The notes under the pieces are model-generated. The model was given only the letters and a program-made list of their open reading frames with translations, was not told the origin of the DNA and did not search any database. Shown one piece after another: positions 30,133 to 33,915 of a stretch of 33,916 nucleotides of DNA (positions are counted from its first letter, which is position 1; each line of letters opens with the position of its first letter). A program made the translations under genes and the position numbers. Source of the stretch: Chloroflexota bacterium (GTDB lineage: Bacteria; Chloroflexota; Limnocylindria; Limnocylindrales; CSP1-4); assembly GCA_027364875.1 (NCBI GenBank), contig DAHXON010000035.1, positions 291 through 34,206 on the forward strand, written 5' to 3'.

Positions 30133-31215
30133 ATGAACACACTGCTGACTCTCACGGTGGCCAACCTCAAGGGCCTGACCCGCGATCGCGCCGCTCTCTT
30201 CTGGACCTTCTTCTTCCCGGTGATGTTCGTCCTGCTGTTCGGCGTTATCTTCTCGGGGAGCAGCAACAGCAAGGTGGCGGTCGGCTTCGTCGATCTCAAC
30301 GGGTCGGTGGCCTCGCGCGGCGTCCAGACGGCGCTATCGGGCGACAAGGTGCCGCTGACGCTCCAGGTCGGCACGCTCGACGCCGAGAAGGCGGCCATGC
30401 AGCGCGGCGACGTGTCGGCGATCATCGTGATCCCGTCGGGTTTCCAGGATTCGCTGTCCGCCAAGAACCCGGTCGCGCTTCAGCTGTACACGGACCCGAC
30501 GAAGTCCACCACTTCGCAGGTCGTGCAGAGCGTACTGGGTGAGCTGGTCAACAACATGAACCTTGGGCTTGCCGGCGGCACGGCCCTCGTCTCCCTGAAG
30601 CCCGAGAGCCTGTCGTCCACCACGCTCAGCAACATCGACTACCTGGTGCCGAGCATCCTCGCCATGGCTCTGATGCAGCTCGGCGTGTTCGCCGCGATCC
30701 CGCTGGTGGAGCAGCGCGAGAAGGGCATCCTCAAGCGCATCGGTGCGACGCCGCTCGCCCGCTGGAAGCTGGTCGGAAGCAACATCCTGCTGCGCCTGAT
30801 AGTGGCGGCCGTCGACACGGTCCTCATCCTGGGGGTCGGGATGGTCGTGTTCAACGTCCAGATCACCGGCAACTTGCTCGCCATGGCGGGCTTCGTCTTC
30901 CTGGGCGCGGGTGCGTTCCTGGCCCTCGGTTTCGCTCTTGCAGCCTTCCTCAAGACTGAGGAGCAGGCCAACGGCGTGGTCCAGGTGGTCCAGATGCCGC
31001 TGATGTTCCTGTCCGGCATCTTCCCGTTCGACTTCATGCCGGAATTCCTGCGGAATATCGCGCGCCTGTTGCCGCTCACGTACCTCGGCGACGCTTTGCG
31101 CCAGGTGATGGTCAACGGCACTCAGGTGGCGCCGATCGGAGTGGATCTGGCGATCCTGGTTGGCTGGCTGGTGGTCTGCCTGGGCATCGCGGCCCGCTCG
31201 TTCCGGTGGGACTGA
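30133..31215 (+). CDS. ABC-2 type exporter permease
   Basis: 360 residues. One N-terminal membrane segment (FFFPVMFVLLFGVIFSG) is followed by a large external domain (about 45-165) and then five more hydrophobic segments, the ABC2_membrane_3 (YhgE/NatB-like) layout. EQREKGILKRIGATPLARWKLVGSNI is the conserved coupling region. TAGGAG at the end of the ATPase gene serves as ribosome binding site. With the ATPase it forms a two-gene exporter, working as a dimer of each. Confidence 0.92.
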   Translation: MNTLLTLTVANLKGLTRDRAALFWTFFFPVMFVLLFGVIFSGSSNSKVAVGFVDLNGSVASRGVQTALSGDKVPLTLQVGTLDAEKAAMQRGDVSAIIVIPSGFQDSLSAKNPVALQLYTDPTKSTTSQVVQSVLGELVNNMNLGLAGGTALVSLKPESLSSTTLSNIDYLVPSILAMALMQLGVFAAIPLVEQREKGILKRIGATPLARWKLVGSNILLRLIVAAVDTVLILGVGMVVFNVQITGNLLAMAGFVFLGAGAFLALGFALAAFLKTEEQANGVVQVVQMPLMFLSGIFPFDFMPEFLRNIARLLPLTYLGDALRQVMVNGTQVAPIGVDLAILVGWLVVCLGIAARSFRWD

Positions 31216-31337
31216 CGCTTCCCCGGCTCGGGTGAGAGGCCGCCGCTGGGTGAGTCGCGGCCGCGCCGCGCCGGTCAGGCCGCGGCGGTCCGCGTTGGCC
31301 GGGCCGGGCCGGGCCTGGCCGCCCGCTCGGGCCTCAA

Positions 31338-31497
31338 TTCCAGCGCCAGTGGAGTCTCGCGCCGTTTCGGGCCGCGTCTATGCCATTGCGGACCTCAATT
31401 CCAGCAGGAGTGGAAGACCGCCAGGAAGCGCGGCCCGCCTGTGCTCGCGGCGAGCGTCGCCCAGCTGAATGGCCACCGGGCTCCACTCCGGCTGGAA
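31338..31497. repeat. Three copies of a short TTCCAGC-type palindromic repeat
   Basis: TTCCAGCGCCAGTGGA at 31338-31353 and TTCCAGCAGGAGTGGAA at 31399-31415 are direct copies. TCCACTCCGGCTGGAA at 31482-31497 is the same element inverted. Each has a TTCCA/TGGA(A) stem and a variable centre, like REP-type elements. They lie in the 350-base gap after the exporter permease, next to the nitroreductase fragments. A further direct repeat, GGGGGCGTCGAACGG, occurs at 31521-31535 and near 31543-31557. Confidence 0.65.
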
Positions 31498-31568: not shown

Positions 31569-31607
31569 TTCGTAAACGATGGCTTCAAGCGGCTTGCGAC
31601 CCAACGC
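31569..31607 (-). pseudogene. Nitroreductase 3'-end fragment, third copy
   Basis: Read on the minus strand directly after the stop of the 98-residue gene, this encodes ALGRKPLEAIVYEE, matching the nitroreductase C-terminus GGRKPLEAVVHYERW. DNA similarity to the intact gene covers about 35 bases with a 3-base gap. It has lost the stop codon position and runs on into repeat sequence. It is too short to have a function of its own. Confidence 0.65.
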
Positions 31608-31904
31608 TCACCCGTACCGGAAGCGGCACCGATCCCCGTGCACGTAGAGTGCGAAGTCGTCGATGCTGCTGCCGTCGTCCGGCACCAGCCGAATTCCCAG
31701 GAGCCGCACTTGCCGGGAGGTGCCCTCCCATTCCTCGACGTCGAGATCTGGCTGGTCCAGCAGGGCACCCCATCGCTCGAACAGAGGTCTGACGTTCTCG
31801 AACGCGGGCGTTGGCTCGAAATGGCCCTCGAACCACGGCATATCCGGTTCAGTGTCGGTTATCCGAGCCAGCGCCGAGCCTTGTCGGTCCAACGTGAAGT
31901 TCAC
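31608..31904 (-). CDS. Small protein of unknown function, between nitroreductase tails
   Basis: 98 residues from the GTG at 31904, beginning MNFTLDRQGSALARI. The GTG overlaps the stop of the preceding nitroreductase fragment (GTGA, 31904-31901). The product is acidic and soluble, with a Trp/Phe-rich middle (MPWFEGHFEPTPAFENVRPLF) and an end VHGDRCRFRYG. It looks like a compact alpha/beta single-domain protein and resembles small accessory or immunity-like proteins in size and charge, but I cannot name a family. The frame is open upstream to 32051, where it reads the decayed nitroreductase copy out of frame. Confidence 0.6.
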   Translation of the reverse strand: MNFTLDRQGSALARITDTEPDMPWFEGHFEPTPAFENVRPLFERWGALLDQPDLDVEEWEGTSRQVRLLGIRLVPDDGSSIDDFALYVHGDRCRFRYG

Positions 31905-32051
31905 AGCGGGCTGCACCACTCGTAGATAACGACGGCCTCGAGGGGCTTGCGGCCGCCGGAGCGCTTGACCCAGGTGAGCGCGTCCGGCTTCTCCGGGTAG
32001 CCGAACGAGAGGAAGAACCGAATACCAGACAGCCTCATCCGACGGCCCCAT
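31901..32051 (-). pseudogene. Nitroreductase 3'-end fragment, second copy
   Basis: The 100 bases 31919-32018 match 32543-32642 in the intact nitroreductase with 8 mismatches by my count and no gaps. They encode FFLSFGYPEKPDALTWVK and then RSGGRKPLEAVVIYEW before a TGA at 31903-31901. Upstream, PSDEAVWYSV (from 32042) resembles the next part of a nitroreductase but is one frame off, so this is a frameshifted remnant. It begins within about 7 bases of the DUF4288-like stop codon. An internal ATG at 32038 could allow a 45-residue peptide. Confidence 0.75.
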
Positions 32052-32057
32052 CTGGCC

Positions 32058-32486
32058 CTACTTCCACAACTCTCCGGGCTTCACCACCGCGCAGTGGTAG
32101 CAGGCGGAGTATCCACGCGCTTTGTTGTAGTACCGGTGCTCGCGTCCCTCAGCCTCGCAGTCAAGTGGCTCCGGTGGATATCGGAGTGACAGGTACTCCG
32201 TGGGTCCGAGGTCGCTTTGGTCCATGTGTGAATAGACCTCGGCCCCGACCGCTACCTCATCAAAGGGTTGATAGATATCGACGAAGCCGGTGAAAGTCAC
32301 CGCGTCCAGCATCCCGGCATATCGGTTCGCCTCGCGCATGGCCAGCGCGATCGCCTTCTGACCGCTTCGGGCGCGCAGGAGGACGACGCGCTCCTCATAG
32401 AGCTGTCGGGGTCCAGAGCCTCGATCGGCATGCAGGAAGACGCTGTTTGCAGCGAACCACGTCTTCTTTCCCTTTCGCTTCGCCAC
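32058..32486 (-). CDS. DUF4288-like small protein
   Basis: 142 residues from the GTG at 32486, preferred over the GTG at 32492 because AGGAGG (32499-32494) then has 7 bases of spacing. The N-terminal TWFAANSVFLHADRGSG...LYEERVVLLRARSGQKAIALAMREANRY is the DUF4288 pattern (WxAAxxxF...EERxxLxxAxS...A). The C-terminus adds a Tyr/Cys-rich tail (YSACYHCAVV). Function is unknown; small proteins of this kind are often found among accessory or toxin-immunity genes. It sits 47 bases after the nitroreductase stop, and a nitroreductase remnant begins right after its own stop. Confidence 0.7.
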   Translation of the reverse strand: MAKRKGKKTWFAANSVFLHADRGSGPRQLYEERVVLLRARSGQKAIALAMREANRYAGMLDAVTFTGFVDIYQPFDEVAVGAEVYSHMDQSDLGPTEYLSLRYPPEPLDCEAEGREHRYYNKARGYSACYHCAVVKPGELWK

Positions 32487-32533
32487 TAACACTCCTCCTG
32501 CTCACGGGACGTTCGGCACCAAGTCTCCGCGTC

Positions 32534-33055
32534 CTACCACCGCTCGTAGTGGACGACGGCCTCGAGCGGCTTGCGGCCGCCGGCGCGCTTGGCCCAGGTG
32601 AGCGCTTCCGGCTTCTCCGGGTAGCCGAACGAGAGGATGAACTCGCACCAGTGGTCGGCGGGGTAGCCGAGGAGTTGCCGGGCAAGGGGCTGGTCGTAGA
32701 CCGTGGCGGGCACGGAGCCAATCCCGAGCTCCCAGGCGGCGAGGGTCATGTTCTGGGCGGCCCGGCCCAGGTCCCACATGATCGAGTACGGGGCGTCGTG
32801 CGTGGCCGGATCTGGCACGACCAGGGCGATGGCCGCGGCGGCGCCGGCGATGTGGCCGGCATAGGAACCCACGCCGGAGAGGTCCTGAAGGTGAGCCCGG
32901 TCCGTGCAGACGATGAAATCCCAGTTCTGCTGGTTCTTGGAGCTGCCGGATCGGCGGCCCGCGTCGAGGATGCGGCGAAGGTGCGCCGGCTCGAGGGGCT
33001 TGTCGAGGAACTTGCGAATGGCCCGGGTCCCGTCGATTGCCTGCCAGGTTTCCAT
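32534..33055 (-). CDS. Nitroreductase-family FMN oxidoreductase
   Basis: 173 residues, compact nitroreductase fold. Family marks are the N-terminal RAIRKFLDKPLEPAHLRRILDAG, the FMN-contact segment SSKNQQNWDFIV, WDLGRAAQNMTLAAWELGIGSVP and the C-terminal GRKPLEAVVHYERW. Such enzymes use NAD(P)H or reduced carriers to reduce nitro, quinone or related groups; the substrate is unknown. It begins 17 bases after the alpha/beta hydrolase stop and has GGAGGG just before the ATG, so the two are probably one operon. Its last 100 bases are repeated in a partial copy at 31919-32018 and more weakly at 31569-31602. Confidence 0.88.
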   Translation of the reverse strand: METWQAIDGTRAIRKFLDKPLEPAHLRRILDAGRRSGSSKNQQNWDFIVCTDRAHLQDLSGVGSYAGHIAGAAAAIALVVPDPATHDAPYSIMWDLGRAAQNMTLAAWELGIGSVPATVYDQPLARQLLGYPADHWCEFILSFGYPEKPEALTWAKRAGGRKPLEAVVHYERW

Positions 33056-33072: not shown

Positions 33073-33915
33073 TCAGGAGCCGGCAGGCTCAGTCGCCGTC
33101 TTGCCGGCCAGCCCGCCGAAGCCGTAGACGGGATCGTCGGGGCGCTTGACCTCGACGTCCGCCGCGCGCCGCCCGGCGAGATCCGGATCGAGTCCACCGA
33201 GCGCCTCGGCAAAGAAAGCCGCGGTCTTGCGCCGGCAGCCGGCATCCTCGTACAGCCAGCGATGCCCGAAATCGGGCAGGACGAGAGTCTCGACCACCGG
33301 GTCCACCTCGTCGCGCTGCCGGGTCGCGGCCCTGGCGATCATCTCCAGGTGGCTCACGGGGACGCCGTGATCCTGCGCTCCGTGGATCAGCAGAAGCGGC
33401 CCGCGGTACGTTGCCGCGGCCACGGTGGCGCTGGCTTCGTGGAGCCCGTGACGGCGTGGGGCGAGCAGCAGGGCGGCGGTGAACCACGCGAGAGGCGTCG
33501 CGATGGGCTCCGGGATGTTCATCTCGGCCATCTCGAACGTTTTGCGGGTGATCAGGACGATATCGGCCGGGGCCGAGACGCTCACGACCGCCTGGATCAG
33601 CGGCTCCCGAGCTGCGGCGACGATCGCCCCTGCGCCCCCCATCGAATGGCCGAGCACGCCGATGCTTTCGACTTCGGGCCGGCGGGCCAGCCAGCGGACG
33701 GCCGCGACCGTGTCCTCGGCGAACTCGGGGACGTTGACCGGCAGATCGTCGGTTGGGCTGTCGCCGTGGCCTCGAACGTCGAAGACCAGGCAATGGAAGC
33801 CTGCGGCGTGCAGATACCGGACGTGGGCGAACGTTCGACCGCGATTGGACTCCCAGCCGTGAACGACAACGACCGCGGGGCCGGCGACCCGCTCCGGCTC
33901 GCGGGCGGGCTCGGG
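33073..33915 (-). CDS. Alpha/beta hydrolase, 5' end cut by window edge
   Basis: 280 residues visible; the frame runs off the window end, so the N-terminus is missing. VVVVHGWESN is the oxyanion-hole region, FDVRGHGDSP follows, and the nucleophile elbow is GHSMGG. The catalytic acid is likely the Asp in GAQDHGVP and the His is in LPDFGHRWLYED. The order Ser-Asp-His and the spacing fit a serine esterase, lipase or peptidase-like fold of the Hydrolase_4/Abhydrolase_6 type. Substrate is unknown. Near the middle, IPEPIATPLAWFTAALLL is hydrophobic and may form the lid. It leads the operon with the nitroreductase. Confidence 0.88.
   Translation of the reverse strand, partial: PEPAREPERVAGPAVVVVHGWESNRGRTFAHVRYLHAAGFHCLVFDVRGHGDSPTDDLPVNVPEFAEDTVAAVRWLARRPEVESIGVLGHSMGGAGAIVAAAREPLIQAVVSVSAPADIVLITRKTFEMAEMNIPEPIATPLAWFTAALLLAPRRHGLHEASATVAAATYRGPLLLIHGAQDHGVPVSHLEMIARAATRQRDEVDPVVETLVLPDFGHRWLYEDAGCRRKTAAFFAEALGGLDPDLAGRRAADVEVKRPDDPVYGFGGLAGKTATEPAGS

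What the first reader, a model, noticed from the sequence alone, without database searches (positions are those of the whole stretch)
31569..33055. Small genes separated by repeated copies of a nitroreductase 3' end
On the minus strand the order is: intact nitroreductase, DUF4288-like gene, nitroreductase tail (100 bases, 92% identical by my count), 98-residue unknown gene, shorter nitroreductase tail. Each tail begins at the stop codon of the small gene before it, and the second small gene starts on the stop codon of tail 2 (GTGA overlap). This looks like a modular unit, small gene plus nitroreductase tail, added repeatedly at the 3' end of one gene. Options: an integration target at a gene 3' end that is restored on insertion; serial tandem duplication with decay and gene insertion; or recombination between tails that exchanges small genes. 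The small proteins look like accessory or immunity-type proteins, which is inference.
Basis: partly seen in the sequence, partly recalled or inferred. Interest (0 to 1): 0.75.

Follow-up and report, generated by a model that had tools for sequence, protein, structure and literature searches.

The report
Immunity-like gene cassettes behind a nitroreductase
In a genus of mostly peatland bacteria the end of an ordinary enzyme gene appears to act as a docking site where small genes, some of them immunity-like, are added one after another and passed between species, leaving copies of the enzyme gene's last 110 or so letters as scars.

Summary
On the minus strand: nitroreductase (NTR, 33055-32534), DUF4288 gene, a 105-nt NTR tail (91.4% identical), a 98-codon gene, and a 36-nt tail relic. 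It is not unique to this genome. In a Chloroflexi genus the site between NTR and a convergent ABC-permease gene is empty (7-110 bp) in 6 of 18 species and longer or rearranged in 12; 7 of the 18 carry 11 displaced NTR tails. Eight of the 11 start 103-117 nt before the stop. Two sister pairs match along NTR, then diverge in the last 50-60 nt. In four of nine tails scored, differences sit at third codon positions, so they evolved as coding NTR elsewhere. DUF4288, absent from a sister species, is shared with a distant one at higher DNA identity than flanking genes. Cargo includes an Imm5_like protein and relatives of genes at Rhs toxin loci. Best reading: a site where mostly co-directional, partly immunity-like cassettes are added by recombination in the NTR 3' end, newest next to NTR. 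It resembles rAID, Rhs-orphan and integron arrays, but no linked tyrosine recombinase was found. For the window's own tail 2, local duplication is not excluded.

The parts
32534..33055 (-). intact nitroreductase (NTR) gene, the docking gene; its last ~110 nt are the repeated 'tail'
   Evidence: PF00881 E 3.7e-21; NTR 3' end visible in 18 of 21 genus genomes, with conserved neighbours in most
32058..32477 (-). cassette 1: DUF4288 gene, 56 nt after the NTR stop
   Evidence: PF14119 E 6.9e-7; at E <= 1e-8 found only in G000 and, at the same place, G015 (83% aa), of 177 class genomes; dN 0.115 / dS 0.55 between the two
31914..32028 (-). displaced NTR tail 2, with left edge CTGGTATTCGG (32028-32018)
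   Evidence: 105 nt at 91.4% to the NTR 3' end; left edge with one extra base, as in tails of other species
31608..31904 (-). cassette 2: 98-codon gene (P98), GTG start overlaps the stop of the tail-2 frame
   Evidence: relative (52-53% over 49-58 positions) shortly upstream of an Rhs core fragment at G000:C37
31566..31604 (-). relic of an older, shorter NTR tail 1
   Evidence: 36 nt, 75-78%; nhmmer E 7e-4
33073..33915 (-). alpha/beta hydrolase gene, conserved left neighbour of NTR (cut by the window end)
   Evidence: PF00561 E 3.3e-19; upstream of NTR in 17 of the 18 genus loci, the exception (G005) being cut by its contig end there
30133..31215 (+). ABC-2-type permease gene, convergent, conserved right boundary of the docking site
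   Evidence: 7-110 bp from the NTR stop in six genus members with an empty site, 10 and 58 bp in two outgroup genera

Best explanation
The 3' end of this nitroreductase gene is a genus-specific docking site for small gene cassettes. A typical cassette is a co-directional open reading frame that starts within about 60 nt of an NTR stop (or its relic) and is followed within roughly 0-67 nt by a copy of the last ~110 nt of NTR. Incoming DNA, probably mostly from related species, recombines within the NTR tail. The recipient keeps an intact NTR, in some cases apparently with the donor's last bases. The new small gene lies next to NTR, and a displaced tail marks the join to the older cassette. Repeats of this give an array with the newest gene nearest NTR, probably transcribed with NTR (inference). 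The cargo includes genes that look like immunity proteins against Rhs-type polymorphic toxins, so the array may store protection against neighbours' toxins (inference). Shown: empty and filled sites, different cargo, clustered tail starts, mosaic 3' ends in some pairs, sharing of cargo between species. Inferred: order of events, co-transcription, immunity function, and that the enzyme is general recombination acting on tail homology.
For: Conserved neighbours with NTR-permease distances from 7 to >3064 bp. 11 displaced tails at E <= 0.005 in 7 of 18 genomes, all inside the inserts; the 5 weaker nhmmer hits (E 0.039-0.95) lie outside them. With the last 300 nt of NTR as query, 8 of 9 tails found start 103-118 nt before the stop end (the ninth at 67, placed at 103 by the profile). 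CTGGT lies one base further from the core than in intact genes in 5 of 10 tails, two more near-fits, three not. NTR 3' mosaics: sisters G010 (filled) and G020 (empty) 10% divergent before -52 and 33% after (1 of 300 permutations reach this); G015 and G011 8% then 24% (6 of 300); G000 and G006 98% identical in the last 58 nt against 67-93% in the other eight bins. Mismatches by codon position: G011 tail against own NTR 0,1,8 (P 0.001); against the nearest intact NTR, G012 tail 1 2,2,15 (P 6e-5), G002 4,4,13 (0.007), G017 tail 2 4,3,13 (0.004). DUF4288 is in G015 but not its sister G011, and its DNA is 82.6% identical to G000's while four flanking genes are 73-80%. The methyltransferase unit of G001 starts 3 nt after the NTR stop; in G015 it follows an 18-nt tail relic (seen by eye) behind Imm5_like. 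Cargo: Imm5_like E 1.3e-15, DUF7832 E 2.9e-21; a 37%-identical DUF7832 protein starts 62 nt after an Rhs tip gene in G001; Rhs cores in 16 of 21 genus genomes.
Against: In the window itself tail 2 differs from NTR by 3,2,4 (no third-position excess, P 0.35), as a local duplication would. Four more of the nine tails scored (G010, G012 tail 2, G017 tails 1 and 3) show no significant excess. The tail tree has weak support. Some inserts (G001, G010, parts of G011, G012, G015) hold genes on the opposite strand, G019 and G003 hold no recognisable cassette, and G016 has no ABC permease within 13 kb. Several cargo types have no family or toxin link; the closest extra copy of the Imm5_like gene (82% aa, G001:C9) is not beside an Rhs core, and Imm5_like and DUF7832 also occur widely elsewhere. 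P98 relatives in 6 opened Streptomyces plasmid regions (one without annotation) sit by no named polymorphic toxin; one is near an Imm21 gene, one beside an HNH endonuclease-family gene. 110 nt is short for homologous recombination.
Confidence: 0.57

Rival explanations
1. A site-specific recombinase encoded elsewhere (phage, plasmid or a free-standing tyrosine recombinase) integrates circular cassettes at an attachment core near CTGGTNNNCGGTTC...CTCTCGTTCGG (loose consensus by eye), so the tails are att sites, as in islands that use gene 3' ends or as in integrons.
For: Clustered left edge of the tails; one-base-shifted left-edge motif in tails of different species with different cargo; the window's tail 2 has the shifted left edge and then its own NTR sequence, as a crossover at the core would give; PF00589 recombinases occur in 21 of 21 genus genomes.
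Against: No PF00589 match on the NTR contig in 17 of 18 genomes; the one on G020:C32 is about 150 kb away (many contigs are short; serine recombinases and transposases were not searched by family). Inferred breakpoints in intact NTR genes vary. No viral contig encodes a close NTR relative.
Confidence: 0.2
2. Homology-facilitated illegitimate recombination with displacement, as proposed for V. cholerae T6SS immunity arrays and Rhs orphans: donor NTR plus new gene recombines in NTR and joins illegitimately to the recipient's NTR tail, pushing the old gene downstream.
For: Same architecture of conserved-gene 3' fragments between immunity-like genes; apparently foreign 3' end on intact NTR (G010, G015); the model is described in PMC5361080 (passages).
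Against: Independent illegitimate joins should start at many points in the 522-nt gene, yet 8 of 9 tails start within 103-118 nt of its end, and several share a left edge with one extra base.
Confidence: 0.15
3. Serial local tandem duplication of the NTR end with decay, and unrelated insertion of genes between copies.
For: Tail 2 of the window and the G011 tail are nearest to their own host's NTR (91-92%); the window's tail-2 mismatches show no coding pattern.
Against: Tails in G002, G010, G012, G014 and G017 are nearer to another species' NTR than to their own (for G017 tail 1 by 1% only); the G011 tail differs almost only at third positions (0,1,8); in 1.28 Mb of fetched, partly overlapping sequence the same filter gave such 3'-end repeats at NTR loci plus three other places.
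Confidence: 0.08

Closest known systems
rAID (recombinase-associated acquired interbacterial defence) arrays of Bacteroidales
   Same: short genes in a row, partly immunity-like cargo, repeated conserved sequence between genes (definition seen in passages of PMC12247911)
   Different: no tyrosine recombinase found at the locus; the repeated sequence is the 3' end of a housekeeping gene; Chloroflexi; immunity not tested
V. cholerae T6SS orphan-immunity arrays and Rhs/CDI displaced tips
   Same: old immunity genes pushed downstream, with 3' fragments of the conserved gene, newest nearest the conserved gene (passages of PMC5361080)
   Different: the conserved gene here is a nitroreductase, not the toxin/effector; no toxin tip in the unit; clustered tail start
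Integron gene cassettes (features recalled)
   Same: unit of one gene plus a recombination-type site; growth at the end nearest a fixed gene
   Different: no integrase found at the locus; the site is coding-derived NTR sequence; attC-type folding not assessed
Integrative elements using 3' ends of protein genes (recalled)
   Same: gene restored by an element-borne 3' end, direct repeat at the far side
   Different: small units without a visible integrase, stacked up to three tails deep

Membership tests
rAID | predicted tyrosine recombinase at the array | tested here: not met
   no PF00589 match on 17 of 18 NTR contigs; G020:C32 has one ~150 kb away; several contigs are short
[quoted passage not shown]
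   two co-oriented genes after NTR in each of G000, G015, G017 and G002 (sizes 93-370 codons); first genes of G001 and G010 are reversed
rAID | genes are orphan immunity genes | tested here: inconclusive
   Imm5_like met; P98 and DUF7832 by Rhs association; others unassigned
rAID | conserved intergenic sequence motifs | tested here: met
   NTR tails
Displacement arrays (T6SS/Rhs type) | genes separated by 3' fragments of the upstream conserved gene | tested here: met
Displacement arrays (T6SS/Rhs type) | conserved gene is the toxin/effector | tested here: not met
   PF00881 nitroreductase
Integron cassette array | integron integrase and attI | tested here: inconclusive
   no PF00589 at the locus; no integron-specific model was run
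Integron cassette array | attC sites with folded hairpin | not tested
   tail folding not computed
Polymorphic-toxin immunity genes | neutralises a cognate toxin | not testable with these tools
   needs bench work
Anti-phage defence genes (PADLOC) | match to a PADLOC model | tested here: not met
   0 of 6 cargo proteins given at E <= 0.1

The most novel reading that the evidence does not exclude
A housekeeping gene's 3' end has become the attachment site of an integron-like system: free immunity cassettes carry their own frame-shifted mimic of the last ~110 nt of nitroreductase (left edge roughly CTGGTNNNCGGTTC), insert next to the gene in order, restore it, and spread between species, using a recombinase encoded elsewhere or none at all.
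Probability: 0.3. Interest if true: 0.85.

Novelty: new variant of a known kind. Interest (0 to 1): 0.6.

Why it matters
Arrays of captured immunity genes are known where a toxin gene or a recombinase anchors them. Here an unrelated metabolic gene is the anchor, and the scar of each addition is a readable copy of that gene's end. If right, this gives ordered records of gene capture in uncultured soil bacteria, a way to find candidate immunity genes without toxin neighbours, and a test case for how very small gene units move without a visible mobility gene.

Tried and rejected
Simple duplication and decay: rejected as the general explanation, kept open for the window's tail 2. A genome-wide habit of 3'-end duplication: in 1.28 Mb of fetched, partly overlapping sequence (window, NTR loci, other-genus loci, Rhs loci, some G000 contigs) a filter for 50-300-nt repeats of ORF 3' ends gave 14 rows, 11 at NTR loci and 3 elsewhere: L153 (a contig with an Rhs core, not read further), L171 and L092, which were read and are repeats of similar coding segments. 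The filter misses weak tails (G012 tail 2, G014, G017 tail 1, tail 1 of the window), so it is no proof of absence. Outside the genus: 16 further loci were opened (two, G005b and G007, are contig-end pieces from the genus; 10 hold an NTR at 52-64% identity and 4 a paralogue at 34-48%); at E 1e-4 none showed a tail repeat of the 52-64% NTR; one 36-nt repeat by the G026 paralogue was not followed. In one search the outgroup G030 gave a 32-nt match 7.7 kb away (E 8e-5), taken as chance. Phage origin: no close NTR or DUF4288 relative in viral contigs. Anti-phage defence cargo: no PADLOC hit for 6 proteins. P98 relatives on plasmids: 16 records, 6 opened, no consistent toxin neighbour. DUF4288: no paper in the library holds the word; 12 of 301 phylum genomes match PF14119 at E <= 0.001, 9 over cut-off, contexts not opened; four plasmid records match weakly. 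Literature: the searches listed nothing on cassettes at a nitroreductase 3' end; 'not in print' rests on these alone. Structure prediction of P98 was not obtained. The tail-left-edge motif was not tested against a formal null. Dropped rows: G005 (partial NTR), G017 (frameshifted NTR) and the two outgroups were left out of the 120-pair tests; the window's tail 1 was left out of the tail alignments, and G014's partial tail out of the tests; one Imm5_like comparison was out of frame and is not used.

Full report
The observation. The minus strand of 33055-31566 reads NTR, DUF4288 gene, tail 2, 98-codon gene, tail 1. Tail 2 matches the NTR 3' end over 105 nt at 91.4% (E 4e-39). Tail 1 is a 36-nt relic (75-78%; E 7e-4 against a profile of 20 intact tails). 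In the whole assembly tail-2 DNA matches only itself and NTR at E <= 0.001.

The site in relatives. The window lies in a 3.8-Mb, 208-contig assembly. The 18 named loci that encode a relative are all Chloroflexi MAG records, 14 with 'fen' isolate names; the genus has 21 genomes in the collection. In 18 of them the NTR 3' end is visible. The usual neighbours are alpha/beta hydrolase, NTR and, convergent, an ABC permease. The distance from NTR stop to permease is 7-110 bp in six (G005, G006, G008, G009, G013, G020) and 10 and 58 bp in two other genera; it is 338, 502, 1129, 1322, 1322, 1698, 2323, 2336, 2350 and 2423 bp in ten; in G010 the contig ends after 3064 bp without it, and in G016 the permease is not within 13 kb. 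So the ancestral state is most simply an empty site (inference from the outgroups).

Tails in relatives. A profile of intact tails finds 11 displaced tails at E <= 0.005 in 7 of the 18 (G000 two, G002, G010, G011, G012 two, G014 partial, G017 three). All lie inside inserts; five weaker hits (E 0.039-0.95) lie outside. An 18-nt relic in G015 (after Imm5_like) was seen by eye only. By the profile, 8 of the 11 begin 103-117 nt before the end of the stop codon, two at 125-127 and tail 1 of the window at 46; the profile itself is only 135 nt long, but blastn with 300 nt gives the same picture (8 of 9 at 103-118). Anchored on CTCTCGTTCGG, 5 of 10 tails have CTGGT exactly at -17, one at -18, one has CTGGC at -17, and three do not fit (G011 is host-like, at -16); in the intact genes shown that have CTGGT it is at -16. 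This shared extra base suggests a common origin of these tail starts apart from present NTR genes; it was not tested formally.

Cargo. After NTR or a tail, co-directional genes often begin within tens of bases: DUF4288 (G000, G015), Imm5_like (G011; second in G015), a 128-134-codon unknown (G014, G016), a HEAT-like gene below Pfam's cut-off (G012), lipoprotein-like and zinc-ribbon-like genes by my own reading (G002), and others (G017). DUF4288 is found only in G000 and G015 of 177 class genomes (E <= 1e-8) and P98 only in G000 (E <= 1e-4). G015 and G011 are sisters that share Imm5_like (92% DNA), but only G015 has DUF4288, between NTR and Imm5_like. Its DNA identity to G000 (82.6%) exceeds that of four flanking genes (72.9, 76.9, 74.2, 80.3%). 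The methyltransferase unit is 91.7% identical in G001 and G015 while flanks are 75-82%. These point to transfer between species and to addition next to NTR. By contrast the G014/G016 gene (71% DNA) is less alike than two flanking genes (76 and 82%), as expected for inheritance in sister species. Cassette genes evolve as coding genes: DUF4288 dN 0.115 / dS 0.55, Imm5_like 0.041/0.24, methyltransferase 0.044/0.21.

Recombination in the 3' end. In 58-nt bins G015 and G011 are 88-97% identical until the last bin (76%); G010 and G020 84-95% until the last (69%); G000 and G006 are 67-93% and then 98%. G014 and G016, which share their first cassette, are 74-93% and then 72%; G019/G003 and G013/G019 change little (83 and 84% in the last bin). 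Two-segment tests put changes at -52 for G010/G020 (1 of 300 shuffles), -58 for G015/G011 (6 of 300), -276 for G000/G006 (0 of 300) and -121 for G000/G011 (16 of 300). These are among the 22 strongest of 120 pairs (16 of the 18 genomes), uncorrected; 9 of the 22 have the breakpoint in the last 125 nt and 13 in the body, so exchange is not confined to the tail. Averaged over the 120 pairs, tail identity (0.789) is close to body identity (0.797), so the end is not simply faster. The displaced G010 tail is closer over the last ~50 nt to the empty-site sister G020 (12 of 52 mismatches) than to its own NTR (20 of 52), as expected if it keeps the recipient's old end; it is about as close to G006 (11 of 52). 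Mismatches by codon position show third-position excess for G011 (0,1,8 against its own NTR), and, against the nearest intact NTR, G012 tail 1 (2,2,15), G002 (4,4,13) and G017 tail 2 (4,3,13), P 0.007 or less, but not for G000 (3,2,4), G010 (2,7,7), G012 tail 2, G017 tails 1 and 3. Older tails probably decayed; the window's tail 2 may come from its own species.

Mechanism. No PF00589 recombinase lies on 17 of 18 NTR contigs; G020 has one about 150 kb away. I favour recombination through tail homology, with a trans-acting recombinase as main rival. The steps shown are insertion, tail scars, 3' end exchange in some pairs and sharing of cargo; the order of steps, the enzyme, co-transcription and immunity function are inferred.

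Immunity link. One cargo is Imm5_like (E 1.3e-15). A P98 relative (52-53% over the part held at a contig end) lies some 150-200 nt before an Rhs-repeat and core fragment with a variable tip in the same genome. The DUF7832 cargo of G010 has a 37%-identical relative that begins 62 nt after an Rhs tip gene in G001. 23 hand-picked cargo ORFs were tested against 50 loci, 46 of them around Rhs-core matches; beside these two, only a partial Imm5_like match near an Rhs gene in G008, a zinc-ribbon match at two non-Rhs loci (on the NTR contigs of G011 and G015) and one marginal methyltransferase match (E 0.01) appeared. Rhs cores occur in 16 of 21 genus genomes, but DUF7832 (13 of 21 genomes) and Imm5_like (16 of 21) also occur widely at other places, so the link is suggestive only.

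Comparison with known systems. rAID arrays are defined by a tyrosine recombinase, co-oriented short orphan immunity genes and conserved intergenic motifs (PMC12247911, passages): the motif is met, gene order and immunity are open, the recombinase is not met. Displacement arrays in V. cholerae keep old immunity genes and shift back 3' ends of effectors, by a proposed homology-facilitated illegitimate recombination (PMC5361080, passages): same anatomy, different anchor gene. Loci made mainly of multiple immunity genes are described in PMC3482391 (passages). The 2019 Nature paper on AID systems is not held; I know it by recall and from citations. I therefore file the locus as a new variant of captured-gene arrays, not as a member of either family.

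Noticed in passing
L067 (G017:C69), NTR gene: The NTR of G017 aligns in two overlapping pieces in different frames (codons 1-43 and 23-173), so it looks frameshifted, or the assembly has an error; this genome has the most displaced tails (three).
   Followed up: no
L087 (G000:C37, 7316 bases): An Rhs core fragment with a variable tip follows a P98-like gene right at a contig end; several Rhs cores lie on short contigs, as repeats breaking an assembly would give.
   Followed up: partly
L164 (G001:C9, reverse strand 2-2316): Rhs tip ending in a VEVKFG stretch (nuclease-like, recalled) followed after 62 nt by a DUF7832 protein: a candidate toxin-immunity pair that would give DUF7832 a role.
   Followed up: partly
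L228 (G001:C9:9790-10377): A copy of the Imm5_like cassette gene (87% DNA to G011) away from NTR, homology limited to about the open reading frame, no tail repeat beside it.
   Followed up: partly
L052 (G016:C86): Behind the first cassette the usual ABC permease is missing and genes that look by eye like purine biosynthesis genes follow, so this side of the site was rearranged.
   Followed up: no
L064 (G003, 290-451 after the NTR stop): Part of the 502-bp insert of G003 is a direct repeat spaced about 64 nt, without a recognisable gene or tail.
   Followed up: no
window 31328-31414: Two copies (85% alike) of a 26-nt sequence 61 nt apart between tail 1 and the ABC permease.
   Followed up: no
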